64,000 nucleotides of DNA from Prorocentrum cordatum. Its lineage: Eukaryota; Sar; Dinophyceae; Prorocentrales; Prorocentraceae. The notes under the pieces were generated by a model, which ran no database searches, had not been told where the DNA came from, and was given only the letters and a program-made list of their open reading frames with translations. The stretch lies in the NCBI GenBank assembly GCA_963575745.1, contig CAUYUJ010015284.1, positions 278,972-342,971 of the forward strand, read 5' to 3'. Numbering within the stretch: position 1 is the first letter of the stretch; each line of letters begins with the position of its first letter. Both the position numbers and the translations under genes were made by a program. This document shows, in pieces, positions 29,977 to 56,488 of this stretch.

Positions 29977-30355
29977 ACTTTAAACGGAGAAGGTTAAAGG
30001 CGAGGTATAAATCGAGCATGTACCGCTGCCGTGCCTGGCTCAAGCCGGGCCCGGCCAAATATGTGATTGTGCCTCACCGAGGCGCACGACTTGCATCAGA
30101 GATCGGAAAATACCTTTTCCATTGACGATGCCCATCCTATCCTTTACTCCAGATCCCATGCTTCGTCTTGCCCTCTTGCTCATGCGATATGAGCCAAAGC
30201 CTGGGATATGGCAACGCTTAAAGCGTAACACATACCTTTATTTGTTTTTTTTTTTTTAAATTTTATTTTTTTATTTTTTTAAATTATTTTTTTTATTTTA
30301 TAAGGCTTACCAGCTTGTTTTCGACTTTGGTTGCGACAGCGCGTCGTTTTCGACT
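29977..30355 (+). repeat. left LTR of the copia element
   Basis: Matches 46721-47005 with four substitutions. It differs by a 64-65 nt T-rich insertion (30238-30301) and by one extra copy of a segment ending GTTTTCGACT, which brings its end flush against the primer-binding site. It contains TATAAAT at 30007-30013 and CCGTGCCTGGCTCAAG at 30029-30044. Confidence 0.9.
30238..30301 (+). repeat. T-rich insertion in the left LTR
   Basis: Almost only T and A, absent at the equivalent point of the right LTR (46980), where CACATACCT is followed directly by AAGCTTACC. One LTR acquired or lost it after the two became separate. Confidence 0.85.
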
Positions 30356-30367
30356 TGGTAGCGGAGC
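30356..30367 (+). promoter_or_regulatory. primer-binding site (tRNA primer)
   Basis: TGGTAGCGGAGC immediately follows the LTR end. It ends with the complement of tRNA CCA and closely resembles the complement of an initiator-Met tRNA 3' end. The same 12-mer lies at 47563-47574 at the head of the second copia element, which supports the call. Confidence 0.7.
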
Positions 30368-30720
30368 TGGCTACACTCTCGTGTGGCTGGCTCTCGCTCT
30401 GATTCCAGTAATCCACGGCACAACTTGGTGGACTACTACTACGGTGGAATACCATGTTGCGCCGGCTCTGCGAGGAGCGGAGCCAGTCCGCGATCGAGCT
30501 AGCGGGGCAACCCGCGAACTCGAGACGCTCTCTCCTACTTCACTGCGCTACTTCACTCCCGACTTCCACAGATGCCAATCGGCAACTCGATCGAGAACGT
30601 GGTCACCCTGCGGGGCTACCCGCAGCGGGGCCACCTGCATCCCGTGCCAGTCAGGCGCCTCACGGCTACTACGCCAGAGCCTGACAAACCACAGCCTAAA
30701 CCAATCACCGAAGCCGTCAC

Positions 30721-32478
30721 ATGCACTGGATTAAGATAACTATCTTCGGCATTCTGTGGGTAATAATGGGATGTGCTGTGGGATACATGCGGCAGGGGAT
30801 GGACGACACGCGTACTACTGGCCCTTCATGGGACCCTGCCGGTACTACGCCTTTTCGCGAATATGTTCGCGAAGTACATGCATGGTTTAACGTAACGAGC
30901 GGCAATATGACACCACCACAACAAGCTGCAGCACTACAACGAGGCCTTCAAGGTCTGGCTCGTCGTATCGCCATGCAGGTCCCCTCCCAGATCATCAATT
31001 ATGGTGTAACTGTCATTGGACAGCCAACGGATGCAGTAACATATATACTGTACTTACTGAGCACCAAATTTGAAAATCTGGAAGATGAGCGCCAGCTCAA
31101 CTCTGGCACTGCCCTTATCGACTTTCGCGTCGATAGGGGCGAGCGAATCGACTCAGTGTTAGCTCGATTCGAGATGGCCCGTGACGAGGCTAACTCTGTT
31201 GGCTTTGTCATCCCCAACTTTCAGATCCTAACGCTGATTCTCTTCAGAGCGTTAGGCGTTGGCGCGTCACGAGCCCAACACCTGCTTGAGCCCTTTAATA
31301 ATCAGATGCCCCGAACACAAGCAGACTATGACAGGCTGCTGACCAGGATGAGGAACTACGGACATGTTGCCGAGCGCTCTCCTGGCAACATAGCGGGTAT
31401 CTTCACAGGGCACCACTCACATGCAGGTGTCTACGCCACGACTGCGGGGTCACCCGCTGGTCCTGGCGAGCCAAATCCTTGGGCTGACCCTGCCGATATG
31501 CCCAACGAGGCCACTGCCCTTTTAGGACAGACTGGCCAGGCATCGGCAGAGGCAGCTGAGGCGAACGCCTGGTCGAACTACTCGCCAGGCGCCGCCTACA
31601 CTGCAAGCCCGCCCTCGGGCACAACCCTCTGGGGCCAAGCGGAGTCATCCGCTCAAGGGTCTCAGCCACCCTCACCGTTTGAATCTGGCACTGACACAGA
31701 CACCTCATCTGACGATGAGCACAAGGGCATAGTCTCTGCTGGTAATGACTATCCAGCGGATGACACTCACCTTTCTGAACAACAAAGAGCGGAAGCCGCT
31801 TTTATGGCCTATCGCAAATCAAAACGCCGTTGGAGGCGCTTTATGAATAAACCAGTCAGAAAAGTGAGACGTGCAGTACGCCGACATTTCAAACGATATG
31901 GAAAGGGTCGTGGCAAAGGGGGTCGCAGACGCCGTATGCATGGTAGGGGTATCACTGCTTTCCGCACGTCCTTAACTGATATAGCCTTTGAAGAAGTTCT
32001 TATCGGAGGCAAAGGTCGGGGTCACAGGCGGACCTCCGGTAAGGGAAAAGGGCGGAGGGGCAACCCTAGGGACGCTTCTGGCAATACTATGAAGTGTCAT
32101 ACATGCGGTAGCACAGAGCATTTGCGCGATCACTGCCCGAAGGGGAAAGGAAAGGGATCCGTACATTTGGCTCAAAATTCTTTTATGGATGACATAGATT
32201 ACATTGACTACGAGTTTTACGTCAATCCAGAAGCGGCTCCCGCTGCGGGCTCCTCCACGTATTACGTGATGGCCCGCTACGCTGAAGCAACCGTAGCCCT
32301 GGAAGACTACGCAGTGACCCTCTTCGACGAGTTCCACGGCTGGGACGAGGTCGACGAGGTCGCGTTCAATGCTTGGTTCGGTCTTCCAGCGGGGCACCCG
32401 CCGGCGACGAGGTCTCCGAAGCTGAGACCGTCCCGGCGACCGAGGAAGAGCTCACCGCCGCGCTGGCACCGCAGGTGA
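30721..32478 (+). CDS. gag: Gag-like ORF with CCHC zinc knuckle (copia element)
   Basis: 585 residues. A hydrophobic N-terminal segment (residues about 4-22, KITIFGILWVIMGCAVGY) could be a membrane anchor. WDPAGTTPFREYVREVHAW, RGLQGLARRIAMQVP and FLRAL-type helices resemble the Gag of dinoflagellate copia elements I recall. A basic stretch (residues about 360-420, rich in RR and GKG) is followed by a CX2CX4HX4C knuckle (Cys at 32095, 32104 and 32134, His at 32119) expected to bind the element RNA. The region 30454-30720 upstream also contains short frames with three hairpin copies, so the true start may lie upstream and be frame-broken. The frame is lost at 32389-32401, where one hairpin copy is 13 instead of 14 nt, and a TGA follows at 32476. 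Confidence 0.8.
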   Translation: MHWIKITIFGILWVIMGCAVGYMRQGMDDTRTTGPSWDPAGTTPFREYVREVHAWFNVTSGNMTPPQQAAALQRGLQGLARRIAMQVPSQIINYGVTVIGQPTDAVTYILYLLSTKFENLEDERQLNSGTALIDFRVDRGERIDSVLARFEMARDEANSVGFVIPNFQILTLILFRALGVGASRAQHLLEPFNNQMPRTQADYDRLLTRMRNYGHVAERSPGNIAGIFTGHHSHAGVYATTAGSPAGPGEPNPWADPADMPNEATALLGQTGQASAEAAEANAWSNYSPGAAYTASPPSGTTLWGQAESSAQGSQPPSPFESGTDTDTSSDDEHKGIVSAGNDYPADDTHLSEQQRAEAAFMAYRKSKRRWRRFMNKPVRKVRRAVRRHFKRYGKGRGKGGRRRRMHGRGITAFRTSLTDIAFEEVLIGGKGRGHRRTSGKGKGRRGNPRDASGNTMKCHTCGSTEHLRDHCPKGKGKGSVHLAQNSFMDDIDYIDYEFYVNPEAAPAAGSSTYYVMARYAEATVALEDYAVTLFDEFHGWDEVDEVAFNAWFGLPAGHPPATRSPKLRPSRRPRKSSPPRWHRR

Positions 32479-33914
32479 TTGGCATGCCGTTGCTGCCAGA
32501 CCTTTCGCGAGCTGGTTCGGAGGCGGGAGACGCTGATGACGAAATGCGGGGCCATCCCGCGTATTCTGACTCTGAAGAGGCCGAAGAGGACTATAAGGAC
32601 ATGCTCCAAGAGCAGGTCGCCGAAGCAATCCAGCTCCTGAGTGCGCCAGCACATCAGCAGATAACCATGAACGACCTGCTGTCGCGCCCAGGGGCCGCAA
32701 GGCTGCGTCCATACCTGGATTCGGACATGTCGGCACCTCAGATGCTGACAGCACTCCAGGCTCTAGCGGGGTCACCCGCCGAAGTGACGCCAGCCGCAAC
32801 AGCGGGGCCACCCGATTGGTCTATGGATGTATTTATGCAAGGTTGTGATCAAATAGACCTTAACGACCTCACGATGGAGCAGTTAAACGACATCGGGTAC
32901 TTCCGAAGCCCGTATCAACACGTGTTCATGGTCCAGGACAGCTCAGAGGACTCGGAGGACATGCGCTACGCCAAGAGGGACAGACGACCGTCGCCTCCCC
33001 GAGACTCAGAGCATGACGATCAAAGGCCAATGGAACGCGGTAGTGCGTCAGCGGGGCCAGCCCGCAGGAGGGGCCGTTCAGCTCCCAGACGCCCTACACA
33101 TGATGCATCGGGCTATCCATACAGTACTGAGCACTCCGTTGGAGTATCCGCTCAGCATGTGCCGGATTGGTACATCAACTGGTACCCCGGCTATTCGATG
33201 GACGTGATCCGCCTCTGGTATTCTAAGGAGTACTGCACCAAAAGGGACGAAACTGGCGTGATAATACGTACCAAGGGTGGCAAGACCAAAACGCCAGAGG
33301 CTTGGGACAAAAGGGCTAAGAAACAGGAGATCATCAACGATCGCAAGACATACAGGAAACAAGTATGTCAACGCGAGCCCTTCAAAGGTCACATGCGCAG
33401 TTGTCCGATGGGCCGCCCCTCCAGGAGTCCTCATCACGGTGAGACCCCGTGGAATTGGTCTCATGGAGACGACGCTGGCAACGTCCATGATCCTAACAAG
33501 GAGGTCCCTGGAGGAGGAAAGCGCATCACCGAAGCCGATCGCGTCCCTATGACCGAAGAGGTGGCCAACATCGTCAGGGAAAATTGGGTACAGCTTCCCA
33601 ATGACCATCGCCTCAAAGAATGGAACCGCCGATTCCATAAAGAGGCGGGGTCACCCGCAGGATCCAGTAAAGAGGCGGGGTCACCCGCAGGATCCAGTAA
33701 AGAGGCGGGGTCACCCGCAGGATCCAGCAAAGAAGCGGGGTCACCCGCAGACGCGGCGCCAGCCGCTGGGTCCGCGGACGACGATTGGATAGCTGTTGCA
33801 TCTGCTGCTGGGTCCGCCGCCGGCACTGACCACACCGATCTGAATGAAGAATGGGCGGCGGAAGACGGCTCAGAGAATCCATTCCCTGATGGATGCGCCT
33901 GCTGGTTTAATACA
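32400..33914 (+). CDS. acidic/basic region between Gag and the Tpt1 domain
   Basis: Continuation of the polyprotein in the next frame. It begins acidic (many E and D), then a basic Arg-rich stretch (about 33040-33090), then an apparently folded part (WYINWYPGYSMDVIRLWYSK, residues around 33165-33230, and WDKRAKKQEIINDRK). It ends in four 30-bp direct repeats at 33643-33762, each consisting of one hairpin plus a GGATCCAG(T/C)AAAGA spacer and coding for AGSPAGSSKE-type repeats. No domain recognised. Runs into the T-rich tract. Confidence 0.65.
33643..33762 (+). repeat. four 30-bp tandem repeats, each with one hairpin
   Basis: AGGCGGGGTCACCCGCAGGA with a spacer, four units with the last one diverged. 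It shows local amplification of the dispersed hairpin. Confidence 0.9.
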
Positions 33915-34009
33915 GATTTTTTTCTATTTTTTTTCTATCTTTTTTGTTTTTTTTTTTTATTTTTTTTTTTTTTCTTTTTGTTCTTTTTTTTTTTCTTTGT
34001 TCTTCTTTT

Positions 34010-34068
<59 letters not shown>

Positions 34069-34117
34069 CTTATTTTTTTTTTCTTTATTTTTTTTTTTTG
34101 TTTTTTCTTCGGCGCAG
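33915..34117 (+). other. T-rich tract, possible GA-AG intron
   Basis: 203 nt, over 90% T. It begins GATTTTTTTC and ends TTCGGCGCAG. The coding frame before it (ending ...WFNT at 33914) and after it (starting AAG TGG at 34118) differ, and removing exactly this segment joins them. If not removed the frame reads poly-Phe and terminates at 34139. Non-canonical GA donors are known in dinoflagellates. Confidence 0.5.
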
Positions 34118-36708
34118 AAGTGGTTTTGCACGAGGGTAATTCACCGCCATGAAAATGGCAAGTACAAACTGGCCATAAAAGGTACTGCCGACATCGACCA
34201 GATGAGGCAGGTCATCCATGATCATGGCCAGCCAGAAGGCCCTCCTAGAGACCCTCCTGGTCCACAACCGGGCAAGGGCAGCAGACCACCTCCAAGACCT
34301 GAAGCCGACTCCTCGTCTTCACCGACTCCTGCGAAAAGGCACCCGTCCAAGAGCCCCGAAGGCACACAGGGGCGGGCGAAGGCCAGAGAGATCGCCAAGA
34401 CGGACGACCCTGAGCCGGTAGATCCTCCCGGTCTGTCCGTGACGGAGAGGAGGAAGGCTTTTGCTGGACCATCGACCCCGATGCCACCGGCTGCCCAAGG
34501 CGATGTCAAGGACGAAGTTCGCAATCAGCCTAAGGCAGCCTTCCGAGGTGACTGGACTCCAACTCTGCATCAGCCGCGCCTTGCACCACGACCAGGTTCG
34601 GCACGAATGAAAGCACAGCCGAAGCCCGAAGCTGGGATGAGGTCGGTGCGGGCAGAAGCGGCCGCCAAGGCTAAAGAGGACAAGGGCTCTGCGGGGCCAC
34701 CCGCTAAAGCGGCGCCAGCCGTAGCAGCGGGGACACCCGCAGAAGGCACTCTCTCAAGAGAAGAACGCTTCAGAGTCCTCAAAGAATTTGGCGACCGACA
34801 GAAACTAACCGATGATGCAGTTGCTGACCAAGGTCACCCGAACCCTGGCGCGGAGTCATCCGCTGGAGCTGCCTCGTCAGCCGCAGGCTCTGCTGGGCCA
34901 CCCGTTAAAGCGCCGCCGGCTGCATTAGCGGGGCCGCCCGCACGCGGGCAGCCAGCAATGTCTGTTCTTAGGAACATCCCTCTGGGAGCCATCGAATACT
35001 GGCAAGGCATTGAAGGCAAAGGCCCGAAGCGCACCATAAACCCACGAGTCACTCGAGACGATACGGACCGATACGAGGTCATTGATTGCCCTGATCGTCG
35101 TAACTTCGAGTGCCGCAACGACTGGGAACGTGAACAACAAACCGTGGGAAATATGTTGCGAGACAGGCCGCCACTACGCGTTGCGCAGCATAAAGCAGAG
35201 CTCCTGAAGGTCATGGAGAGGTTCGGCATGGATCCGACTTTGCCGCGAGAAGGGCAAATGACCAAGGTGTCAATATGGTTCTCTACAGCCCTACGCCATA
35301 GTCCATATTGGAAGGACGGATTCAGCCGACACTTCGAAAAGATCAGCACTTTCGATCCATACGATGGCTGGGTTGTTGTTGACGATCTGCTGACAAACTG
35401 GACTGAAAATGATCAGTGGAAAGGCTATCGTGAAATGCACGAGGTGCTGATCAAGGGCAGGCCCCACACGTCATACGTGTATTGGGTGCTGCTAAACTGC
35501 TGTGAGATGATTGACCATCACGGCTTGCAGAAGGGCAGGCTCCAGATGAAGTGCGTTGATGACAGCATGCTGCTGCCTCCCAGGTTTCGACCAACGGCAC
35601 GCAGGCCACAGTACTTCATCAGAGCCACGAACTGCCACAGCAGTCCAGGCATCCACTGTCCCGAGTCGCTTTATAAGCCGATCACAACATGGATGAAAGA
35701 ACCAGACGACCCAGTATATTTCATCCACGGGACACAGTGGGAGTATGTCAAGGACATTCTTGCTAATGGCCTTTCATGCCTCGCACTGGACAACCCTAAG
35801 AGGAAGGGGGGGCGCCAATTTGTGCACGGCTGCCCCTACCTCCCGGGCGACCCGAGGATTCAATCGGGCATCCGTCCTGACTCGGAGGTGCTCATATTCT
35901 GCAGCATCAACAAGATGCTGTCCTGTGGCTTCTCCCTATGGAGATCAGCAAATGACATAGTCATGACACGGGGCCACGACGGACGTATACCGCCCGATCA
36001 TATCCTCCAGATTGAGAGCATTGCGAAATATCGGGTCGGCGAAGCCTGGAGCAATCCGCTGGCTTATGACAAGTCGCGGAGGCGGGGCCAACCCGCGGAC
36101 AGGATTCGCACCGATGACTACCTGCCACTTAAAATGTGTGACAGAACTCTGGGTGTAATGGAAGATCACGCCATGTACCTAAAGGGCTGGACTAAGACGG
36201 ACGGTCGCCCATTCAATTTGATCATGACCGAGCATGATGTTGCTCCACGACCGTACGACACACAGACAGTCCTCATGATGAATGCCCAGGAAGACGAGGT
36301 CATGCCTGAAGCGGGGCCACCCGCAGGTGCGGGGACACCCGCGGTAGACACCTCGGACGGTTCATGGCAACAAGTGGTCACACCAGTAGCAACAGTAGCA
36401 TCTCCTTGGAGGCCGGATCAGCAGGCATGGGTCCAGGCCCTCAACAGCTACTTGACACCAGCCGACGTTTCTGGACTGACCGATCAGCTATATCGTGCTG
36501 ACCCGTGGGCAGTGCATACAGGTATCCAAGACGCACAGCAGAGGAACCTGCGCCCTCCTGCGGGGCCACCAGGCGTCCTAGGACCACAACCACAACGCCC
36601 TCCGCAGCAAGCTGGAGGTGCGAGGTTTGTCCCTATGGGCGGTTCAGATGGTGGCTCGCCGTTTCGGACTCCGCCGTCTGAAACGTTCGGAATCGAATTT
36701 GGTCGTGT
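34118..36708 (+). CDS. copia polyprotein segment with Tpt1/KptA RNA 2'-phosphotransferase domain
   Basis: Open for 2.6 kb. A low-complexity Pro/Ala/Lys part with hairpin-encoded AGPPA peptides (to about 35000) precedes a domain at about 35100-36020 that follows the Tpt1/KptA family from end to end: ALRH (Arg 35294, His 35297), DGWVVVDDLL (35363), FIRATNCHSS (Arg 35621), HGTQWEYVKDILANGLS (35726), YLPGDP, SGIRPDSEV (Arg 35873), RSANDIVMTRG. Known family members use an Arg-His-Arg-Arg set for NAD+-dependent removal of a tRNA splice-junction 2'-phosphate, and some ADP-ribosylate RNA or DNA 5' phosphates; all four positions are kept here. The usual HIH tripeptide after GLS is replaced by FVHG, with an insertion before it. 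A Pro/Gly-rich tail follows. Presence in a retrotransposon polyprotein is unusual. Confidence 0.85.
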
Positions 36709-36887
36709 GATTGTTGGGCGTCTTTTTTTTTGTTATTTTTTTTTTTTTTTTCTTTTTTTTTTTCATTTTGTTTTTCTTTTTTTTTTTTTTTTTTTTGTTT
36801 ATTTTTTTCGTTTTTTTTTTTTTTTTTTTTTCTTGTTTTGCTTTTTGTTTATTATTATTGCTTTTTTTTTTCTTTTTTGTGGCAAAG
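36709..36887 (+). other. second T-rich tract, possible GA-AG intron
   Basis: 179 nt that starts GATTGTTGGG and ends GTGGCAAAG, with a T-rich core from 36721 to 36880. Removing exactly this stretch joins the Tpt1 frame (ending GIEFGR) to the next frame (LQAICGNP) with a shared Val codon. The GATT start is the same as in the tract at 33915. Confidence 0.45.
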
Positions 36888-39204
36888 ACTCCAGGCGATT
36901 TGCGGGAATCCGGCGCTCGCAGCAGCACTCCAGGCGACCACTCCCTTTGGCACTCCGAGGGGTAGTGAAGGAGGAGTGGCTGCGGGGACACCCGCCGAGC
37001 GAACGCCTGCGGAGCCACCCGCACATGCGGGGCCACCCGCTGACGGACAGCAAGGTTCAGACTACGAACGTCGGGCAGCCAACTTAAGAGCACAGGCTAC
37101 CTTTCTGCAGCAACAAGCTGATAGAGTGCCCAGCCTGTTGCGGAACCGCAACATAGATGGTACGAATCATGGCGACTTTCGGCCTCTCTGGAGCTGGACT
37201 TCTGAAGATGCTCCAAATGCTGATCCCACGAATCCATATCGACAGGTGTTTATTCCAGGAATAGCATCACACCCAATATATGTATGGGACAATCATGGAC
37301 CAGCAGAGGCACAGGCCATGGACGCGCCGATGTACCCGGAGTACTACGCGCAGATGAATAACACTCCTATGATTGCGGGGCCACCTGCGAACGAATACTC
37401 TCGGAATCTTGCCAATGAGATGTTTCGTTTGCAGTTTACACGAGCGGTCGATGCGCAGTCTATGCCGCACTACGCCTACATGCCCACGCCGACGGACCCC
37501 GAGACCGTAGTTCAGCCAGCTGGTCTCGCGGTGCCAGCCGCTATGGGCAGCGTGCCAGACTACATCCGCGACGTGCACAACACGCAGCAAGCGATACTGG
37601 CATCTAGGCAGCAGGCTCGGGACAACACCAGGCTGCGCCAACAACGCGCGATCCAGAGAAGGATTGAGCGGGGGACCCAAGCGGGGACACCCGCAGACGC
37701 GGGGCCACCCGCTGAACGGCCAGATAGACGGCCGCCACCGACGCCATATCGGGAGGGCGAAACCACTTTCGAGCGCCAAGCTCGGACTCGCCCAGACGTG
37801 CCTGCTCCAGTCATTTCAGACTACAACTTCACACAGTGCCCAATCTGTATGGACACCTACGAGATGGGCACCACAGTGTGGAGACTGGCGTGTGGGCACT
37901 TCTTCCACGATATATGCTGGGATCGAGTTGCACAGCAGCACGTCCGCAATCAGCGGCCAGGTGCGCCGAACGAGGCCCCCTGCGCTGTATGTCGTGGGCC
38001 GGGCATAGTTATAGCACATTTCCCATATGCTGGACAGCGCGACGCTGAGTCAGAACAAGCGCGCCAGCAGGAGAGGTACGTGGCAGATGCCCGGGAAATG
38101 CGTCGGCTACGGGAAGCAGTGGAGGCGCTAGAGGCTCGAGCCGCGCAATCGGCGGAGCCATCCGCACGTGCCCCAGCTGCACAGGCATACCCCTGGCCAG
38201 CGCCAGAGCAAGGCATCCAGATGCCAATCCTGCCTACGCTTCGAGCACAGGAGCCCCCAGCTGCGGGGCCACCCGCTGAAGCGGCTCCCGCCGCCAAAGC
38301 GGGGCCACCCGCAAATGGGCCTCCAAATCAAGGTTTCCTGAGGGCAATGGAGGCCAACATCAGGCGGAGTGGCAGGAGCGGAGGCGGGACTCGAAGGCCA
38401 ACTGGATCATCCAGGACCTCACGCGTGGCAAGCCCGGTCAGCGCTAGGAGCCGGGCAAGCGCTGAGAGCGCGGAGGCAGCCCAGTTCCACACCACCTTCA
38501 TGATCGATACAGAGGGGCTGACCTATGCACGTGACGACACGGACACGCTGCCGCCAGGAGGTGAATGGATGTCCACACTCTCTGCGAATTATTGGGTTCT
38601 CGAACAGGAACCAATTACCGTGGAGGAGCGCCGCCAATATGAGCAGATGTGGTGCACCGGGTTAACCATGAGTCAATGGGTGCTTGAACAACGCCTGTTG
38701 AAAGGCACACTCGGTTCACAGATTACGTACCACACCGATGACCATGGTACAATGGCTCTGGCAGCGCGAAATGGGACATTCTTTCCTGACGAAGACGGTA
38801 TGCCCTGCATCTCGTTCATGCTAGACATTGGCTCCAACGTGAACATCATTGGAGCCAATACGGCGCGAACCTTCCAGGAGATTATGGCCAGGTATAATCA
38901 CAGACCTGCCATATGCACCCTGAGCAAGACCCTCTACATCAACGGTGTCGGTGAGGGTGCTGCGATATGTCGGAAGATGGGCAACTTTAAGATCGGGGTG
39001 CAATACGCCAATGAGGCAAGCCCCCGTATCGAGGAGTATGCCTCCAACATCGCAGAAGGCTCGGGTGCCAATCTCCCGGCCATCTGGGGCCTAGGAGCCA
39101 TGGAAGCACGTGACACGATCATCGTGCTGAAGCCAGGCTACCAGAAGGTTATCTTCCCCAGCGGTGACTACACCCTGAAGCTGGAAGGGGCGCCAAGGTC
39201 CTGA
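36888..39204 (+). CDS. copia polyprotein segment with RING-H2 finger and aspartic protease
   Basis: A spacer rich in hairpin-encoded AGPPA/AGTPA peptides leads into a C3H2C3 RING: CPIC at 37837-37848, CGHFFHDIC at about 37891-37917, CAVC at 37981-37992, so all eight zinc ligands are present. RING-H2 fingers usually recruit E2 enzymes for ubiquitin transfer. An Ala/Arg-rich coiled segment (REAVEALEARAAQ) follows. At 38815-38850 the motif FMLDIGSNVNIIG (Asp at 38824) is the active-site loop of a retropepsin; the partner flap and the C-terminal GLGAMEARDTIIVLKPG are present up to 39180. The stop at 39202 is caused by a 1-nt frame change, since the next frame continues with VLKAKKTPSGHLAIPCG as expected for the end of the protease. 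Confidence 0.8.
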
Positions 39205-40322
39205 AGGCGAAGAAAACTCCCTCGGGACATCTCGCGATTCCCTGCGGTTTGTATGACGGGGCTAAAAGCCAGACGGTCACGAACTCCTTCACAATCCGCA
39301 GCAGTCGAGATGGCTACACCGAGACGGAGAACGAAGAGGACCCCGTCAGTGCGGGGCCACCCGCCGGAGTAAGTGCGGGGCCACCCGCCGGAGTAAGTGC
39401 GGGGCCACCCGCCGAGACCACAGCGGGGCAACCCGCGACGGGACAGTCCATGACCGTCACGACTGATACGAACATTGTCGAGCCGTATCTCGACAAGCAG
39501 CTCCTGGAAGACACGACCCGTTTGATCGTGGACAGGACGCTGAACAGCTGGTGGGAGGGCCAACAGTGTCCCGAGGGGACCTGGCCACATATGAAGGACG
39601 CCCTGAAGTCTAAGATATTCTGGGCAGTCCAGGAGGCGGTGAATAAATGGACGCCTGAGAACCAAGCGGGGCCACCCGCGACACCGCCACCACCACCAAG
39701 CTACACGGGCGGAGGCTCGTCGGACTCTGCGGGGCCAACCCGCGTGGAGAGCGTGAGCGTAGCCGCACCAGCGACTCCTGCGGAGCCATCCGCTAACAGC
39801 ATGCCCCCGAGTCAGACGGCAACGTGGTCACACGACCGCCGCTGACGGGGGCAGGCGGGCGCGCCGGCGGCGCTCGCTTGCGAAGAGAAGCCGATTACCG
39901 GCCTCCTCGCTACATACGTTGGCCGCGCTGAGGCCCGAGAGGAAAAATATCATTCAAAATGTCTTGTCATCGAAGATATTCGCACAGCTTGCGCTGAACT
40001 CCGAACCCGTGGATATATATGCGACCGGATTACCCATAATGAGGTAATGACTTCAACTGGAACACAGTATTTGGGAAATTTGTTGGCAGGAGACTTCAAT
40101 ATGTTGTGGGTGGCCACACCCTCTGATTGGTACGTTCGTACTCCAGGAAAGAGGGCGGGACCACGCTATCAACGTATACAAAATCTCCTGATCAAAGCGC
40201 GTGCTCTGAGAATGCAGATTGTTATCCTGGGGCCACCCGGGTATTTCTGGAAACAGGGTCCGATCAAAGTTGTTATCGAAGATTTGAAGCTATTGCTATT
40301 TGATGAATCGGTCGTCAGTTAG
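39183..40322 (+). CDS. copia linker plus methyltransferase-like module A
   Basis: Frame 3 runs from the protease end through a hairpin-rich linker (three tandem AGPPAGVS units at 39350-39415), crosses an in-frame TGA at 39843, and continues to TAG at 40320. The part after TGA reads IEDIRTACAELRTRGYICD, then LLAGDFNMLWVATPSDW, KARALRMQIVILGPPGYFW and a helix. With the first 50 residues of the next ORF (MRLCHFGIKF, KYPSGSYIQVATS, LWKCTCGSHKEH) it has the order seen in module B: a TPSDW/PSC-type loop, a PP or QP-x-x-W loop, C-x-(F/T)-G, KP(S/T), then C and H ligands. I infer a degenerate class-I methyltransferase-like fold; weak. Confidence 0.45.
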
Positions 40323-40473
40323 AAATCGAATCGTGCGTTTTTTACTATCAAATTTACCATTATTTCCCTGTCAATAATTTTCTGAAAAATCTAACTAATT
40401 CTATCTAAGCAATCTTTGTTTATAAACCATAGATATTATCATTATGCGTCTCTTTCTGATTTAATAACGCATT
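40323..40473 (+). other. AT-rich interruption within module A
   Basis: About 150 bp, far more AT-rich than the surroundings, with stops in all frames. CATTATGCG occurs at both 40439 and 40469. It separates the two halves of module A and changes frame; it could be an insertion or an intron whose sites I could not place. Confidence 0.5.
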
Positions 40474-42213
40474 ATGCGAATGAGACTCTGTCATTTCGGT
40501 ATCAAGTTTGACCGATCCAGTAAATATCCCAGTGGTTCTTATATACAAGTTGCTACATCTTGTCCTCATATACCGATAAATTTATGGAAATGTACTTGTG
40601 GCTCACACAAGGAGCATGATTTGGATTGGTATGGCCAAGATCAGCAACGTGCCGAGTTTCGGTATAAAACTTTGGCTATTATTATTGCACGCTTCCTTGA
40701 TCAACTCGATAAAGCCAACATGATCAGGAATGAGCGGAGTGCGGTACACCTCAGTGTGTGTACTCGCGTTGACAAAAAGGTCAGACACTACGTCCAATGT
40801 CCACAAAAGGGTCCTCAATGGGACCATGTTGTTCGTAGAGTCACGACCGACCTGGACACGAATAAGATCGTTCAAGATATCAGAATCCAGGATCAGCCAA
40901 CTGGGTACAATTATGTAGCTCCATTACCTGATGGGTTTACAAACATCAGTACTCGGCTATACTGGGAGCCTCCGGCTCCAGTTCTTCATGGCGACGGTGA
41001 GTCGCGAAGGCCACGCCCAAAGCGTGTGGCGATCGTCGATGACGATCGATCTCCTCCCCCTTCGATTGAGCGTTGCCAAACGCGACCCACCAACACCTTT
41101 CCTGAAATTCCGCCATTTCCTGACTTAACAGCGGATCCCTCCGCAGCGGATCTCTCCGCGGAAACTGCGTTGCCCACTGATGCCAGGATAAAACAGAAAG
41201 AAAAGCAGAAAGCTGACAAAGAAGCCGGCATCAAACCGAAGAAAGTCCCGAAGAAAGTGGAAGACGGTAACGACGACTGTGGAGAGGACCTCAAAGGGCT
41301 TGACTGCTCCACATATTTCAACGACGATCCTCTTGACGACTCGGACTCGGACAGCGAATCAGAGGACATCTTCATGATGTTACCGGCGGGGCAACCCGCT
41401 GACTCACATGCTGATGTCTTCTCGATGGTCCAGTCATTATGCTACGGCAGTAACAATCAAGTGGACATGCTTGAATTATGTGGGGGCAAGGGTGGTATAT
41501 CCATATTAGCCTTCAAGAGGGGACTCTCGTCAGGCGGGAACCTTGACAAGATATCTATGGTTGACCTTGGAAATTCGGAAGTACAAAGAGCAGTCCTCCA
41601 CTACCTCAAGACTTGCTTTGTCAAGATCACGATTCTGCAGCCAAGTTGCAGAACTACTGGACTCCCTTCCTACTTCAACGCGCAGGTCAATCATGATACG
41701 TGGCTTAAACACCACAAAGAGGACCTGCCTCACATCACGATCTGTGGAACAGTTGCTCTATTACAAGACGACCTAAGACGTTTCTTTCTCAGGGAACAAC
41801 CAATGGGCACGTGGGTGGATGAGATCCAGCCATGGAAGGAACTGGCACAACGCAAGGTCACTTGCCAAACGATTATTGATCTGTGCACGACTGGTCTCAA
41901 AGATTCATTTGGACAATACATCCGCAAGCCAACACAGATGATGGCAAACAAAGAAGAGTTGTTGGCACCTTTCAGAGGCAAGCGTTGTCCAGGTAATCAT
42001 GTGCACGCCAATGCTTGTAACAAAGAGCTAGCAAGGGCGGCGCAGTATACATACAGAATGCAGTCATTGATCGTTGATGCGGTGCAAATCGCCAAAGACC
42101 TGTTTGCTTACGGTCGCGATCCATTCGCGAATCGTGAACGCAGCTATGCGTTCGTAACAAACAGTGCTGGCTACGACTTGGACGACCCAACAATCCGGAG
42201 ACACCCAAACTGA
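40474..42213 (+). CDS. copia polyprotein segment with methyltransferase-like module B
   Basis: 579 residues. The end of module A comes first, then an acidic/Lys-rich linker, then module B at about 41455-42010: VDMLELCGGKGGISILAFKRG (glycine-rich motif I), SMVDLGN (acidic residue after strand 2), ILQPSCRTTG (compare the P-C loop of C5-cytosine methyltransferases), REQPMGTWVDEIQPW (compare the ENP loop), IIDLCTTG, RKPTQMM and CPGNHVHAN (a C-x4-H-x-H ligand set). Published work reports cytosine methyltransferases captured by retrotransposons in dinoflagellates, but I cannot say this module belongs to that group. It ends in TGA at 42211; the same frame continues into the integrase, so this is a nonsense codon rather than a natural end. 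Confidence 0.55.
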   Translation: MRMRLCHFGIKFDRSSKYPSGSYIQVATSCPHIPINLWKCTCGSHKEHDLDWYGQDQQRAEFRYKTLAIIIARFLDQLDKANMIRNERSAVHLSVCTRVDKKVRHYVQCPQKGPQWDHVVRRVTTDLDTNKIVQDIRIQDQPTGYNYVAPLPDGFTNISTRLYWEPPAPVLHGDGESRRPRPKRVAIVDDDRSPPPSIERCQTRPTNTFPEIPPFPDLTADPSAADLSAETALPTDARIKQKEKQKADKEAGIKPKKVPKKVEDGNDDCGEDLKGLDCSTYFNDDPLDDSDSDSESEDIFMMLPAGQPADSHADVFSMVQSLCYGSNNQVDMLELCGGKGGISILAFKRGLSSGGNLDKISMVDLGNSEVQRAVLHYLKTCFVKITILQPSCRTTGLPSYFNAQVNHDTWLKHHKEDLPHITICGTVALLQDDLRRFFLREQPMGTWVDEIQPWKELAQRKVTCQTIIDLCTTGLKDSFGQYIRKPTQMMANKEELLAPFRGKRCPGNHVHANACNKELARAAQYTYRMQSLIVDAVQIAKDLFAYGRDPFANRERSYAFVTNSAGYDLDDPTIRRHPN

Positions 42214-44448
42214 GAAATCTGGCGACCACCACCTGGCGGTCTTGGGTGCCCTGGCTGTGTGGACAACAACTACAAGCAATCACCAAAGCACAGCAGGGAT
42301 CCGAAGATGTGTCGGTGGTATGATGTTGAACCGTATTACTGGGACTGTCCACGCTGTAAGAAGGAATATCAGAAGAGCAATCCTCATCACACCAAGATAT
42401 CTGGCCAATGCAGATTCGCCGAAAAATGGAAGCTGCCAGATAACTTTGGCCAGCCGCGCCCGGCGGGGCAAGCCGCTCCTGCGGCGCCAGCCGCGGAAGC
42501 GGCTCCAGCCGCAGAAGCGGCGCCAGCCACAAAAGCGGCGCCGGCCGCGAGAGCGCGCATACGCGCGCCTAGGCCGCCACGGCCTGGTGAGGGCGATCCA
42601 ACCGCAGGCGCCAGCAGCCATGACATCACCAGAGCCGAAGGGGCTAATGGTGGCAACACTGGCGCTGGCAGCTCTGACGATCACCGTAGACTGCCACAAG
42701 TTGCAGCGAGGCGCGGACGCATGGAGGGAGGAGATCCTCCACCACCGCCGCAGCCTCAAGCAGAGCCGAGGCCAAGGCCAAGGCTCCCTGATTGGACTCG
42801 CTTCGACGTTCAGCTCAGCCTCCAAAACCTGCGCAGCTTCGACCCAGCTGTAGTGCAGCGAGAACTCCGCAAACTCCACATGAGATGGTTTCATGCCAAG
42901 GAGCCAAAAATGCGGATGATTCTAACCAAGGTTGGTCTGGGTGAAACCCGTTTGAGTCTGATCAAAGGCATTTGTGACTCGTGTAGAGAATGTCGAGCCT
43001 GGGACAAACCAGGCAACACGGTGATGCCTTCTGTGTCACTGCCAGGACGTTTCAACGAGGAAGTCGAATGTGATCTTTTATTTTACAAACAGGAACATAT
43101 TGTTTTTCACATCATCGACCGTTGTATTCGCTGGGCAGCTGGCACAGAGATTCCTGATAAAGCCATGCATACTGTTCTCGATGCCTATCATGCGACTTGG
43201 ATGCAACATGGCCCTGCTAAAATCTTATACTCCGATGGGGAAGGAGCACTGAATAATGATACAGCAAAGGCCATCCTTAAGGCTAAGGGAACATAGCTTC
43301 GTATTCGAGCGCGTGGCCAACACGCTACAACTATCGAAGCTAGGAACGGCATCCTTCGACACCTCCTACACGTGATGGGAGAAGAATTGAATAGATTACA
43401 TATCCCTCTCAATTTCACTCGTCTCTTACATGAAGCCTTGTTTGCCAGCAACGCATTTACCTTCTACAATGAAGTGTCTCCGTACAATGCGCTGTATGGC
43501 AGACAACCAGCTATGCTTCCCGTTTTCCCTGTCTTGGATCATGATCAGTCCGCTGAATCATCAGATCACTCAAGGGAGGAAACAATCAGGAGGGTTAGTC
43601 TGGAGGCAATCACGCAGGCCACTGCGGTTGCCAAGACGAACAGGGCTCTTCGTACGAAGACTACTGCTACGGGTGAATTTCACTACAAAGAGGGAGATCT
43701 CGTGGACTATCATCGCCCGACCACCACAAAAGACGACTGGGGTGGATGGAGTGGTCCATACCCGGTCATCCGCAACGAACCTGACCGAGGCCAGGTCATC
43801 GTGAAGGTCGGCAGTCGCGAAGTGCGAGTACAGTATCCTGACACACGACACACACTGTACATCGAAGCACTTATGGTCCGCGAGATAGGATCGGACAATA
43901 CGGCCCTTCGAACAGTATTGGCCTTTATTGCCGGTCTGCCAGCGGGGAAACCCGCCATGACTTTCGGATATCTACCAGCGAAACAGGGTCGGCTGCAGAT
44001 GACTGCTGCGAGCCGACTTTCGCCTAAGGTTCACTTGGCTCTTCAGTACCTCATACGCAACTACTTTCGTATTGAAAACGTTGTTGCTGTACGACTTGCC
44101 AAGAGCCTGACGAAGTTGCCTGCTGCACCCTATGCAGACAGCTGTACACTAGTGCACTATGATACTGATGTGACCCCTGGTTTTCATTACTATGAAGCTG
44201 ATGGCACTGCCTTGAACATCTATGACATCACAGGATCTACACACTCACGCATCATCCAGTGTCTTAAATCCAGGAAGCCGTCTGCTGGATTTGACCAAGA
44301 CCTCACTAAGTTTGAGGAACTCGCTGATGGTCCACCACCAAGCGAATCACCTCCAGCAGCTGCTCCTGAGGAGCCCCCTACGGATAACGATGGTCGGCTC
44401 CCGACCATCATAGAGGAACAGAAGAAGATCTGGATGCTTTTGTCTTGA
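42214..44448 (+). pseudogene. copia integrase region with internal TAG
   Basis: The frame continues after the TGA with a zinc-ribbon-like part (GCPGC, CPRCKKEY, GQC) and a run of hairpin-derived Ala/Pro repeats (42463-42550). Integrase follows: zinc-binding LHMRWFH then CDSCREC, catalytic Asp in VECDLLFY (43072), Asp in YSDGEGALN (43234) and Glu in TIEARNGIL (43336), giving D,D-x33-E. The TAG at 43294-43296 falls between the second Asp and the Glu in an otherwise continuous frame. The C-terminal part has SPYNALYGRQPAMLPVFP and KEGDLVDYHRP, typical of copia integrase tails in this lineage. TGA at 44446 ends this frame; RT continues in another. Confidence 0.8.
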
Positions 44449-46617
44449 AGTCGTGGTATGCTGAACTGATGGATGACAGAACACTCCTTGAAGCTGACAC
44501 AGAAGAAGTCATGCATACAGTTCCCACATACATGACAGACACACAGTGTGTGTTAGTCTCTACGACCTGTGAAGATGTGCAAGGCCACTTGCCGGAGCGG
44601 GGTCACCCGCCAGGATACGACATGGACACTTCTTACTACGTTCCTTTAAGCTCCACGGAACCGGATAGCAAATATGATCTGGACTCCGATGAGCACGGGA
44701 AGTATATCGAGCTCTGCTTCACTGCAGACATGTCCAAAGTCGTCCTGTCCGAGCAGCAACACCGACTGTTGGATGACAGCATCGTCACAACTATGCGAGT
44801 ATACGTTAGCGCTGCCTCCAAACGTGCCGTGGTCGTCAAGGAAGACGATCTACTCACGAAGGCCGACATCCAAGCAAATCCGGTCAAAGTTTCCAAAGCC
44901 CTCTACACATAATTGAAGACTTGGCTTGACAACAAATGCTTCCAGATGACTGACTTAAGCAAGGCGTCTAACATCATGACGTCACGCTACGTATACAAAT
45001 GGAAGTTTGTCAAGAACGAAAAGGGCGAAATGGAAAGGACGATCAGGTTACGCTTGGTACTCCGTGGCTTCATGGACCTTGAAGCCTTTGATGTCCAAAC
45101 CTTCTCTGGCACGGCAAGGAGGTCAAGCCAGAGACTGCTCGCAAGTTCTGCTGCATGCAACAAAGCTTGGATCATCGCTTCCCTGGACATCAACATGGCT
45201 TTCTTGAAGGGACTGACCTGTGGCGAGCTCGCCGCGGCAACGGGCGAGAAAGAGCGTGTGGTGTGCTTCACACTACCACCTGGGTCAGCAGCTGTCCTTC
45301 GCACACTGCAGGCTTTGAGTCATATGACGAATCAAAGCATTGTCTCCGGTGTCTGAAACCGGGGGCGGGCACGAAGGATGCTCCCAGGGCATTCTCGCTG
45401 AAGCTCAGGTCCATCACTAGGAGCTTTGGGCTACAGCCTACTTCATACGACGAAGAGTTCGAGATGAGCCCAAACCTCTTGACAGCCAAGCACGTTGATG
45501 ACCTCAATATGACTGGGAAGGAAGAGGCTATTGACAAGTATGTCAAGTGTGTTGAAGATACGTTTGGGAAGTGCAAACTGAACAAGCACACATACACAAA
45601 CTGTGCCGTTCGGTATAACAAGACCGATGATGGGAGCGTCACTCTCGATCAGGACGAATACATCAAACAGCTTCGTCCTATCACACATCCAGAACTCACA
45701 GGAGCTGATCCTGAGAGCAAAGCGACAAAGACGATTTCTGATATGTTCGTCAGTCTTCGTGGCGCTTTAGCCTATGCGTTGATCGCGCAGGTATGGCTGA
45801 TGGTCTATGTTGTCTCACTACAACGTATCCAGGAACCGACAAACATCCAGGTACGACGACTAAACGCGGTTACCAGAAAGCTACAGGCAGGTCCGAAGAA
45901 GATCGTGTATCAACCTATGACCCCAACAGGAGAAGTCGACCTGCATAGCGATTCTGGCTATCGTCGTCTCAACGGAGATGAAGACGACGAAGTCAAAGGC
46001 TATGGTCTCCGCGGGGCTAACCTGCTGAGGCGTGGCCACACGCAAGCGGGGAAACCCGTCGTGCACCTGGTGGACGCATACTGCAAGTCTCATCGACTGC
46101 AAGTGCGTTCGAGCTACTCTGCGGAAACACTGGCAGCAGCCCACAACTTGAAGACTGCTACCCGACCATTGTAACGCTCCACGAGCTACACTCGGGACCA
46201 TTGACCCCCACACAGTTAAAGAACATATTGGAAATGGGTGGTCTATGTATCAAAGTCACTCTGACTATTGATGCCGAGTCTGTCTTCAAGTCTTTGTTTA
46301 GCAAAGATCTGAAGAAGCCCACAGAATGTACTCTGCTTGGGCACATCAGCTGGATCCGCCAGATGATGGAACGCGGAATCGTGGAAAGCGTCCAATGGTG
46401 TGACACGCGGGATATGACTGCCGATGGTCATACCAAAGGTAGTATTGACCGCGCGTTGCTCCTACAAGTAATGGCCTGCCAGCAATCCTTCAAGCACGAG
46501 CTGAAGAAACATACGCCGTATAGGGCGGGCAGGTCGTCTCAGGACGGCCCTGCCTCCCGAGCCAGCGGGGAAACCCGCGGGCAGGTGCGCTTTAGCAGCG
46601 AGGAAACTCGCCGGTAG
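44445..46617 (+). pseudogene. pol: copia reverse transcriptase-RNase H, broken into three frames
   Basis: Frame 44445-45356 contains an in-frame TAA at 44910 just before the RT start (LKTWLDNKCFQMTDL), then RLRLVLRGFMD and SLDINMAFLKG (catalytic Asp 45186). A frame change near 45310-45350 leads to frame 45350-46174: GTKDAPRAFSLKL, then HVDDLNMTG (45491-45517), where the usual YVDD has His for Tyr but keeps both Asp. RNase H has Asp 45950 (DLHSDSGYRR) and Glu 46124 (SSYSAETLAAAHN). A second frame change near 46160 leads to the last frame with Asp 46270 and Asp 46423 (MTADGHTKG). All catalytic acids are retained although the frame is not. Confidence 0.85.
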
Positions 46618-46720
46618 CGAGGCTACTCGCGCGCCCGTTCCTTGTAGGCAGCCGCTGCTGCTTAGCACTGTTTTTTCCGCATAATAGAAGTGCGGTACCT
46701 GCTCGTCTCCTCCCCCTCCG

Positions 46721-47005
46721 ACTTTAAACGGAGAAGGTTAAAGGCGAGGTATAAATCGAGCATGTACCGCTGCCGTGCCTGGCTCAAGCCGGGCCCGGCC
46801 AAATATCTGACTGTGCCTCACTGAGGCGCACGACTTGCATCAGAGATCGGAAAATACCTTTTCCATTGACGATGCCCATCCTATCCTTTACTCCAGATCC
46901 CATGCTTCGTCTTGCACTCTTGCTCATGCGATATGAGCCAAAGCCTGGGATATGGCAACGCTTAAAGCGTAACACATACCTAAGCTTACCAGCTTGTTTT
47001 CGACT
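46721..47005 (+). repeat. right LTR of the copia element
   Basis: 285 bp. It lacks the T-rich insert of the left LTR and one of the two GTTTTCGACT copies at the 3' end, consistent with a deletion between those direct repeats. It contains CCGTGCCTGGCTCAAG at 46773-46788 like the left LTR. Confidence 0.9.
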
Positions 47006-47562: not shown

Positions 47563-47574
47563 TGGTAGCGGAGC
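47563..47574 (+). promoter_or_regulatory. primer-binding site of second copia element
   Basis: TGGTAGCGGAGC, identical to 30356-30367. Confidence 0.6.
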
Positions 47575-53261: not shown

Positions 53262-53945
53262 TCTCCTCGCCGTTCCTGGGGGGCTGCGATCTGCGAGACT
53301 GTCGCCACTTTCGAGGGCTGCTGGTGGGTCCAGCGGAGTGAGGCACCGCGCGGACTTGAGGTAGGCCTCGCCATCCCTGGGGGTCTGCGATCTGCGAAAC
53401 TGTCGCCACTTTCGAGGGCTGCTGGTGGGTCCAGCGATGCACCGCGCGGACTTGAGGTAGGCCTCGCCGTCCCTGGGGGGCTGCGATCTGCGAAACTGTC
53501 GCCACTTTCGAGGGCTGCTGGTGGGTCCAGCGATGCACCGCGCGGACTTGAGGTAGGCCTCGCCGTCCCTGGGGGGCTGCGATCTGCGAAACTGTCGCCA
53601 CTTTCGAGGGCTGCTGGTGGGTCCAGCGATGCACCGCGCGGACTTGAGGTAGGCCTCGCCGTCCCTGGGGGGCTGCGATCTGCGAAACTGTCGCCACTTT
53701 CGAGGGCTGCTGGTGGGGCCAGCGATGCACCGCGCGGACTTGAGGTAGGCCTCGCCGTCCCTGGGGGGCTGCGATCTGCGAAACTGTCGCCACTTTCGAG
53801 GGCTGCTGGAGGGTCCAGCGATGCACCGCGCGGATTTGAGGTAGGCCTCGCCGTCCCTGGGGGCTGCGATCTGCGAAACTGTCGCCACTTTCGAGGGCTG
53901 CTGGAGGGTCCAGCGGAGTGAGGCATCGCGCAGACCTGAGCGGGA
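53262..53945 (+). repeat. 96-bp tandem array, about seven units
   Basis: The landmark AGGCCTCGCC recurs at exact 96-bp steps (53459, 53555, 53651, 53747, 53843). Units are nearly identical in the centre and diverge at the ends (53275 and 53880 units). 96 bp is 32 codons, so several frames on both strands stay open through the array. Preceded by a poly-pyrimidine tract ending TTTTTTCAG at about 53164. I see no independent reason to call it coding. Confidence 0.9.
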
Positions 53946-56120: not shown

Positions 56121-56394
56121 TCTATGGTTGATGCACATCGCGTGTTCAAAAAAATCCGGGTTGGCGTCCATGTTGACAGTCATGTCTCTCTGTGCTGCAG
56201 AACAGGTCCGTGTGTACTGGAACCCGTTCTCGACTCCCTCCTCGCATCTCCTTGCTCACGCCTTCATTCCCATTGGACGCTCATTAGCTTCAGTGGCGCC
56301 AACAGAATACAAACAAACCTTGTGACCAGCGACCGGGTTGTCGACACGAGATCCGACTGGACTTCCTGAACAGCTCACGTTATGCTGTCATCGT

Positions 56395-56414
56395 CCGTAA
56401 TCGTTTGGCTCAAG
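56395..56414 (+). other. relic dinoflagellate spliced leader (DinoSL)
   Basis: Starts CCGTA and ends TTTGGCTCAAG; the SL consensus is CCGTAGCCATTTTGGCTCAAG with four internal positions changed or lost here. It lies 75 nt upstream of the ATG of an intronless gene. Genomic SL relics at this position are the mark of a gene re-inserted from trans-spliced mRNA. Confidence 0.8.
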
Positions 56415-56488
56415 TGGCTGAAGTCTGCAGACAGGGGGGCAGCGCCGCGCGCTTTCGAGCAACCATTGCCAGCTTCCGTACCCCGACC

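What the first reader, a model, noticed from the sequence alone, without database searches (positions are those of the whole stretch)
35100..36020. A Tpt1/KptA RNA 2'-phosphotransferase domain inside a copia retrotransposon polyprotein
The domain follows the Tpt1 family from the N-terminal ALRH motif to the RSAN and MTRG motifs, with the Arg-His-Arg-Arg catalytic set present and the frame open over 2.6 kb while pol nearby is broken. Known Tpt1 enzymes remove splice-junction 2'-phosphates using NAD+ and can ADP-ribosylate terminal phosphates of RNA or DNA. A retroelement could use this to act on its tRNA primer, protect cDNA or RNA ends, or repair 2'-phosphorylated RNA. I know of no described LTR element with this domain.
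Basis: partly seen in the sequence, partly recalled or inferred. Interest (0 to 1): 0.92.

Follow-up and report, generated by a model that had tools for sequence, protein, structure and literature searches.

The report
RNA-repair enzyme inside algal retrotransposon
A family of giant jumping genes in a bloom-forming alga carries what looks like an intact copy of Tpt1, an NAD-using RNA-repair enzyme, built into its own protein chain, which suggests a so far unknown RNA-processing step in how such elements copy themselves.

The parts
29977..30355 (+). 5' LTR (contains a T-rich insert at 30231-30302 absent from the 3' LTR and a partial duplication near its end)
   Evidence: 266 bp at 98.1% to 46716-46981; alignment of both LTRs; shared end GTTTTCGACT found only 3 times in the window, both strands
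30356..30367 (+). Primer-binding site TGGTAGCGGAGC, directly abutting the LTR; resembles the complement of an initiator-Met tRNA 3' end (tRNA recalled, not looked up)
   Evidence: the same 12-mer follows the LTR of the C15161 copy; it also occurs once outside the element, at 47563
30721..32475 (+). Gag-like frame with CCHC zinc knuckle at 32095-32136
   Evidence: position; zf-CCHC weak here, E 0.048, below cut-off; 40% identity over 31408-32220 to the frame of a related copy
32286..33910 (+). Linker frame between Gag and Tpt1
   Evidence: open frame; a piece of it (33117-33227) at 68-83% identity in P0001-P0003
33911..34115 (+). T-rich tract upstream of the Tpt1 frame
   Evidence: one of only three such tracts in the window, all in the element
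34118..36706 (+). Open frame carrying Tpt1
35270..36013 (+). Tpt1/KptA RNA 2'-phosphotransferase domain; tetrad codons at 35294-35299, 35621-35623, 35813-35815; HGT 35726-35734
36708..36880 (+). T-rich tract downstream of the Tpt1 frame; relative P0006 reads through here in one frame
37834..38001 (+). RING finger
   Evidence: zf-C3HC4_2 9e-8 and two further RING models above cut-off; full ligand pattern; position
38780..39190 (+). Retroviral-type aspartic protease region, motif MLDIGSN at 38818 (name by motif, recalled)
   Evidence: aligned to P0006 in the same frame as RING; position; no protease Pfam hit
39843..39845 (+). In-frame TGA between Gag-Pro and Pol; same frame open on both sides
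   Evidence: 13 of 16 related copies have a TGA at the equivalent place with the same frame open behind it
39846..42210 (+). Pol N-terminal part of unknown function, interrupted; includes a methyltransferase-like motif at 41467 (recalled, no Pfam support)
   Evidence: 46-63% identity to Pol of related copies
42877..43347 (+). Integrase by motif (H-H-C-C then D, D, E; recalled); broken by a stop at 43294
   Evidence: motif positions; no Pfam hit
44913..46018 (+). Ty1/copia reverse transcriptase, split over two frames; HVDD at 45491
   Evidence: RVT_2 3.3e-8 on 44913-45350; 0.042, below cut-off, on 45092-46018
46021..46614 (+). RNase H by motif (recalled)
   Evidence: open frame; no RNase H Pfam hit
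46720..47005 (+). 3' LTR
   Evidence: 257 of 261 aligned bases identical (4 mismatches, 1 gap) over the part without the insert

Best explanation
The domain is a genuine Tpt1 that belongs to a lineage of 16-17 kb Ty1/copia LTR retrotransposons. Shown: in related copies it sits in one frame with a Gag zinc knuckle, a RING finger and a protease motif; it is high-copy; its sequence is under purifying selection among copies with long frames; its catalytic residues are kept. Inferred: it is made as part of the Gag-Pro precursor, enters the virus-like particle, is released by the protease, and uses NAD+ to remove 2'-phosphates (left when a tRNA-ligase type pathway reseals cut RNA) from the element's RNA template or its tRNA primer, so that reverse transcription is not blocked. 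Identity and integral membership about 0.95; this particular substrate about 0.5.
Against: No enzyme assay and no expression data. The pN/pS copies were chosen for long open frames (16 of 150) and are of a sister family, only about 25% identical to the window's region; the window's own subfamily was not sampled at DNA level. P0009 (EukProt, labelled Pyramimonas) has Ile for the fourth tetrad Arg and Cys at a further Arg. The window copy is broken in pol. None of the seven annotated P. cordatum proteins found (P0001-3, P0005, P0007, P0010, P0012) holds the NAD+ lobe; they hold only the N-terminal lobe joined to other exons. No target-site duplication or polypurine tract was seen. That a 2'-phosphate stops this element's reverse transcriptase is not tested.
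Confidence: 0.55

Rival explanations
1. The domain adds ADP-ribose to terminal phosphates of the element's cDNA or RNA ends (a cap or shield) rather than removing internal 2'-phosphates.
For: Tpt1 family enzymes ADP-ribosylate 5'-phosphate ends of RNA and single-stranded DNA in vitro (PMC8883491 passages). The NAD+-contacting HGT and the tetrad are kept.
Against: The first and third tetrad residues, linked to the second chemical step (PMC6333775 passages), are kept too, so the full 2'-phosphotransferase reaction appears retained.
Confidence: 0.2
2. Tpt1 and the neighbouring RING work together on host factors (counter-defence): ADP-ribosylation or removal of an RNA signal, with ubiquitylation by the RING.
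For: A RING follows Tpt1 in the window (in another frame), in P0006 and, with the full ligand pattern, in 14 of 16 fetched copies. RING is the most constrained part measured (pN/pS 0.066, 15 sequences).
Against: No target known; both lie upstream of the protease in the same frame, which fits a particle role at least as well. Any link between RING ligases and ADP-ribose is recalled, not tested.
Confidence: 0.18
3. A passenger: a captured host fragment without function, or fragments joined by chance.
For: The window copy is broken; one relative lost two arginines; annotated P. cordatum proteins hold only the N-terminal lobe.
Against: Order conserved in P0006 at 32-42% identity, in the 16 fetched copies and in exon order of P0001, P0010 and P0012; pN/pS 0.22; a short palindrome occurs 41 times across the element and 0 times in the remaining 46,990 bases.
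Confidence: 0.04

Closest known systems
Tpt1/KptA/TRPT1 RNA 2'-phosphotransferases
   Same: Pfam family, NAD+ lobe fold, tetrad, HGT motif
   Different: Here inside a retroelement Gag-Pro frame, with an N-terminal extension (34.97-35.27 kb) conserved in P0004 and P0006
Ty1/copia LTR retrotransposons
   Same: LTRs, PBS at the LTR end, RVT_2, Gag with CCHC pattern
   Different: 16-17 kb long; Tpt1 and RING between Gag and protease; in-frame TGA before Pol
KptA domains in RNA-virus polyproteins (Botrylloides leachii nidovirus, Beihai picorna-like virus 117)
   Same: A KptA domain embedded in the polyprotein of an RNA-copying element (PMC9503650 passages)
   Different: Those are positive-strand RNA viruses; the paper's text has no occurrence of retroelement or retrotransposon
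SymbioLINE-Dnmt and SymbioDIRS-Dnmt3 retrotransposons of Symbiodinium
   Same: Dinoflagellate retrotransposons that took in an enzyme and kept its key residues (PMC5890265 section 6)
   Different: Different enzyme and element classes; that paper states that the LTR Copia superfamily lacks any DNMT domain (passage)

Membership tests
Tpt1/KptA | Pfam PTS_2-RNA above curated cut-off | tested here: met
   53.5 vs 26 bits; 84.2 in L012
Tpt1/KptA | Arg-His-Arg-Arg tetrad | tested here: met
   window codons and 16 of 16 copies; P0004 and P0006 yes, P0009 no for the fourth; P0008 and P0011 are partial
Tpt1/KptA | HGT motif of the NAD+ lobe | tested here: met
Tpt1/KptA | ADP-ribosyltransferase (NAD+) lobe fold | tested here: met
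Tpt1/KptA | N-terminal winged-helix RNA lobe and two-lobe arrangement | tested here: inconclusive
Tpt1/KptA | NAD+-dependent 2'-phosphotransferase activity | not testable with these tools
   needs an assay
Ty1/copia LTR retrotransposon | Direct terminal repeats | tested here: met
   window 98.1% over 266 bp; C15161 96.1% over 282 bp
Ty1/copia LTR retrotransposon | Primer-binding site after the 5' LTR | tested here: met
   TGGTAGCGGAGC abuts the LTR in window and in C15161; which tRNA it pairs with is recalled only
Ty1/copia LTR retrotransposon | RVT_2 reverse transcriptase | tested here: met
   33.9 vs 31.6 bits; 32.1 in L025
Ty1/copia LTR retrotransposon | Gag zinc knuckle | tested here: inconclusive
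   CCHC pattern in 16 of 16 copies, but Pfam zf-CCHC below cut-off in window and L012
Ty1/copia LTR retrotransposon | Integrase upstream of RT | tested here: inconclusive
   HHCC and DDE motifs in the right place but no Pfam hit
Ty1/copia LTR retrotransposon | Target-site duplication and polypurine tract | tested here: inconclusive
   no duplication seen next to the LTRs; the 3' LTR is preceded by a pyrimidine-rich run; exact LTR starts uncertain
RING finger | Pfam RING above cut-off and full ligand pattern | tested here: met
   pattern in window, P0006 and 14 of 16 copies
DNMT-carrying retrotransposon | DNA_methylase domain | tested here: not met
   no Pfam hit on 41368-42210

The most novel reading that the evidence does not exclude
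Reverse transcription in this copia lineage includes an obligatory NAD+-dependent RNA-processing step done by the element's own Tpt1 (on the resealed RNA template or the tRNA primer), coupled through ADP-ribose to the adjoining RING ligase. To my knowledge such a replication step is not known in any retroelement.
Probability: 0.15. Interest if true: 0.97.

Novelty: new variant of a known kind. Interest (0 to 1): 0.88.

Why it matters
Outside fungi and plants the job of Tpt1 is an open question: the enzyme is dispensable in E. coli and mouse (PMC6333775 passages). A selfish element that has kept a catalytic-looking Tpt1 under selection in many copies suggests that 2'-phosphate or end chemistry matters to a reverse-transcribing element, and gives a defined system in which to find the substrate. 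It also adds NAD+ chemistry and a RING to the functions an LTR element can carry.

Tried and rejected
Chance junction: rejected (conserved order, many places, selection). Close relatives elsewhere: none by the search for related loci in viral contigs or genome contigs, which look only for relatives sharing two short peptide patterns; none by tblastn in phages or by megablast of DNA in plasmids. These do not exclude distant prokaryotic kin. Integrase and RT frames in viral contigs: nothing; RT in the PDB by sequence: nothing. The first structure model (mean pLDDT 46.5) was too poor and was not used; the second (64.4) was. DNMT capture: no Pfam support. T-rich tracts as introns, slippage sites or trans-splice acceptors: considered, not settled; among 16 related copies only L023 has one. 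A search of the genome with the window's own Tpt1 protein did not complete, so the copy number of the window's own subfamily is unknown.

Literature searches: dinoflagellate + LTR retrotransposon + Tpt1: 0 papers; KptA + retrotransposon: 3, listing only, none on this by title; Tpt1, Ty1, tRNA, NAD, at least 3 of 4: 285 papers, 20 listed, listing only apart from the papers cited; 6, listing only apart from the papers cited; retrotransposon + phosphotransferase domain + polyprotein: 0; Prorocentrum + copia + retrotransposon: 9, 8 listed, listing; PF01885 + transpos: 3, listing only. The library holds open PMC papers only, so absence there is weak. Of the cited papers I saw passages; of PMC5890265 also section 6; of PMC10449503 passages and the start of the abstract.

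Full report
WHAT WAS CLAIMED. A Tpt1/KptA domain inside a copia polyprotein at 35100-36020.

WHAT IT SITS IN. LTRs at 29977-30355 and 46720-47005; 257 of 261 bases are identical over the shared part without the insert. GTTTTCGACT ends both LTRs and occurs once more inside the 5' LTR end, 3 in all on both strands. TGGTAGCGGAGC follows the 5' LTR directly; it also occurs once outside, at 47563. Between the LTRs, in order: Gag with a CCHC pattern, a linker frame, Tpt1, RING (9e-8), a protease motif, a TGA with the same frame open on both sides, Pol, integrase by motif, RVT_2 (3.3e-8), RNase H by motif. No target-site duplication was found and the 3' LTR is not preceded by a purine tract. In this copy the frame changes between Gag and linker, at the T-rich tracts and within Pol.

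ONE UNIT. The 14-base palindrome GCGGGGCCACCCGC (up to 2 mismatches) occurs 41 times in the element and 0 times in the other 46,990 bases (mean 0.12, most 2, in 50 first-order Markov resamplings of the element). A different, gapped pattern gave 29 inside and 7 outside (same call). Of the 41, 35 lie between 31444 and 43942 and all 35 are in phase with the open frame there, where the full motif reads Ala-Gly-x-Pro-Ala; 3 lie in the leader and 3 beyond. Relatives P0006 (8), P0008 (1) and P0011 (2) have the peptide too; P0004 and P0009 do not.

RELATIVES. Three protein searches gave 12 distinct proteins. Seven are annotated P. cordatum proteins carrying only the N-terminal lobe, at 81-98% identity, joined to other exons; three of them (P0001, P0010, P0012) go on to the protease exon, in the element's order. 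Five are from other sources (P0004, P0006 and P0008 from ENA, P0011 from JGI, P0009 from EukProt, labelled Pyramimonas) at 39-52% identity over the part covered. Pfam PTS_2-RNA is over the cut-off in P0004, P0006, P0008 and P0009 and just under it in P0011, which is a fragment. P0006 is one 1627-aa frame with Tpt1 5.3e-17 and RING and the protease motif at residue 1257, collinear with the window. P0008 and P0011 run from Tpt1 into the same linker. P0009 has lost two arginines.

THE GENOME. Search: G000 has 4,128,499,153 bases, close to the 4.15 Gbp given for P. cordatum (abstract). 2877 candidates, 150 scored, 150 over the cut-off; counted by eye in the table, 7 of the 150 have one stop inside the match, 138 lie in frames of 500 aa or more, and 13 in frames of 2926-2943 aa. 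The first seven rows score higher; the five whose frames I printed (L001, L002, L004, L005, L007) are short frames of 249-439 aa, not scanned for other domains. I fetched 16 of the 150, chosen for long frames. All 16 have tetrad and HGT. In one frame, 16 of 16 have the CCHC pattern and Tpt1, 14 the full RING pattern (L022 and L024 not), 15 the protease motif (L021 not). 13 of 16 end that frame at TGA in one identical context with the same frame open for at least 40 codons behind it, which suggests read-through into Pol. For C15161 I also fetched the flanks: LTRs 282 bp at 96.1%, the same PBS at the LTR end, RVT_2 1.1e-7, Tpt1 1.5e-23.

SELECTION. Pooled Nei-Gojobori proportions, uncorrected for multiple hits: Tpt1 16 sequences pN/pS 0.221 (113 of 113 pairs with at least 3 synonymous changes below 1); protease 15 sequences 0.228; RING 15 sequences 0.066; Gag-Tpt1 linker 16 sequences 0.348 (114 of 116 pairs below 1); Tpt1-RING linker 16 sequences 0.110. 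One sequence each was dropped for RING and protease because my pattern did not find the motif. Copies were picked for open frames around Tpt1, which biases the values downward; the comparison between parts is less affected. They are of a sister family, about 25% identical to the window's region.

ORIGIN. In a tree of 14 Tpt1 sequences (6 of 16 element copies, window, 3 other-source relatives, 4 other Tpt1-like frames of the genome) the ten element-type rows form one side of a branch (99/97), with two clades: window plus other-source relatives, and the P. cordatum high-copy family. Rows were cut unevenly on the N-terminal side and long branches meet, so this is a lead only.

HOW IT WORKS. Shown: position in the Gag-Pro frame, kept catalytic residues, selection among copies with long frames. 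Inferred: packaging, release by protease, 2'-phosphate removal from RNA template or tRNA primer. Basis: Tpt1 chemistry (PMC6333775 passages); without Tpt1 in yeast a 2'-phosphorylated junction persists and blocks Xrn1 (PMC6456296 passages); KptA in RNA-virus polyproteins is read as RNA repair (PMC9503650 passages). Alternatives: end capping by ADP-ribose (PMC8883491 passages) or host manipulation with the RING.

NOVELTY. Captured enzymes in dinoflagellate retrotransposons have precedent (DNMT in LINE and DIRS; PMC5890265 section 6). A Tpt1, with a RING, in an LTR element did not turn up in what I could search.

Noticed in passing
window 29977-47005: Palindromic 14-mer GCGGGGCCACCCGC dispersed in frame through the element (41 copies, 0 outside); the related family has a similar palindrome read as R/Q-G-N-x-P. 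Looks like a short hairpin repeat that spreads within the element's own genes.
   Followed up: partly
window 30231-30302, 33911-34115, 36708-36880; L023 7526-7663: The only three T-rich tracts of the window, all on the coding strand of the element, two of them bracketing the Tpt1 frame; the first is absent from the 3' LTR; of 16 related copies one (L023) has such a tract, directly after its Gag-Pro frame.
   Followed up: partly
window 39843-39845; L009-L020, L024: A TGA separates Gag-Pro from Pol in the same frame in the window and in 13 of 16 related copies, suggesting stop read-through.
   Followed up: partly
window 41467-42000: Conserved Pol region with a methyltransferase-like motif (LELCGGxGGIS), also in a related copy; no Pfam hit; resemblance recalled.
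   Followed up: partly
window 47563: The 12-base primer-binding-site sequence occurs a second time, outside the element.
   Followed up: no
window 56288-58744; P0007: Host gene of unknown function; the P. cordatum protein P0007 combines a relative of it (31% over 494 positions) with the Tpt1 N-terminal lobe exon.
   Followed up: no
P0001, P0002, P0003: These P. cordatum gene models share the same Tpt1 N-lobe exon start (35207) and an upstream element exon ending at 33227, in otherwise different proteins: annotation artefact or exonised element.
   Followed up: no
window 53265-53915: Tandem array of a 96-base unit, 6.7 copies, 97% matches.
   Followed up: no
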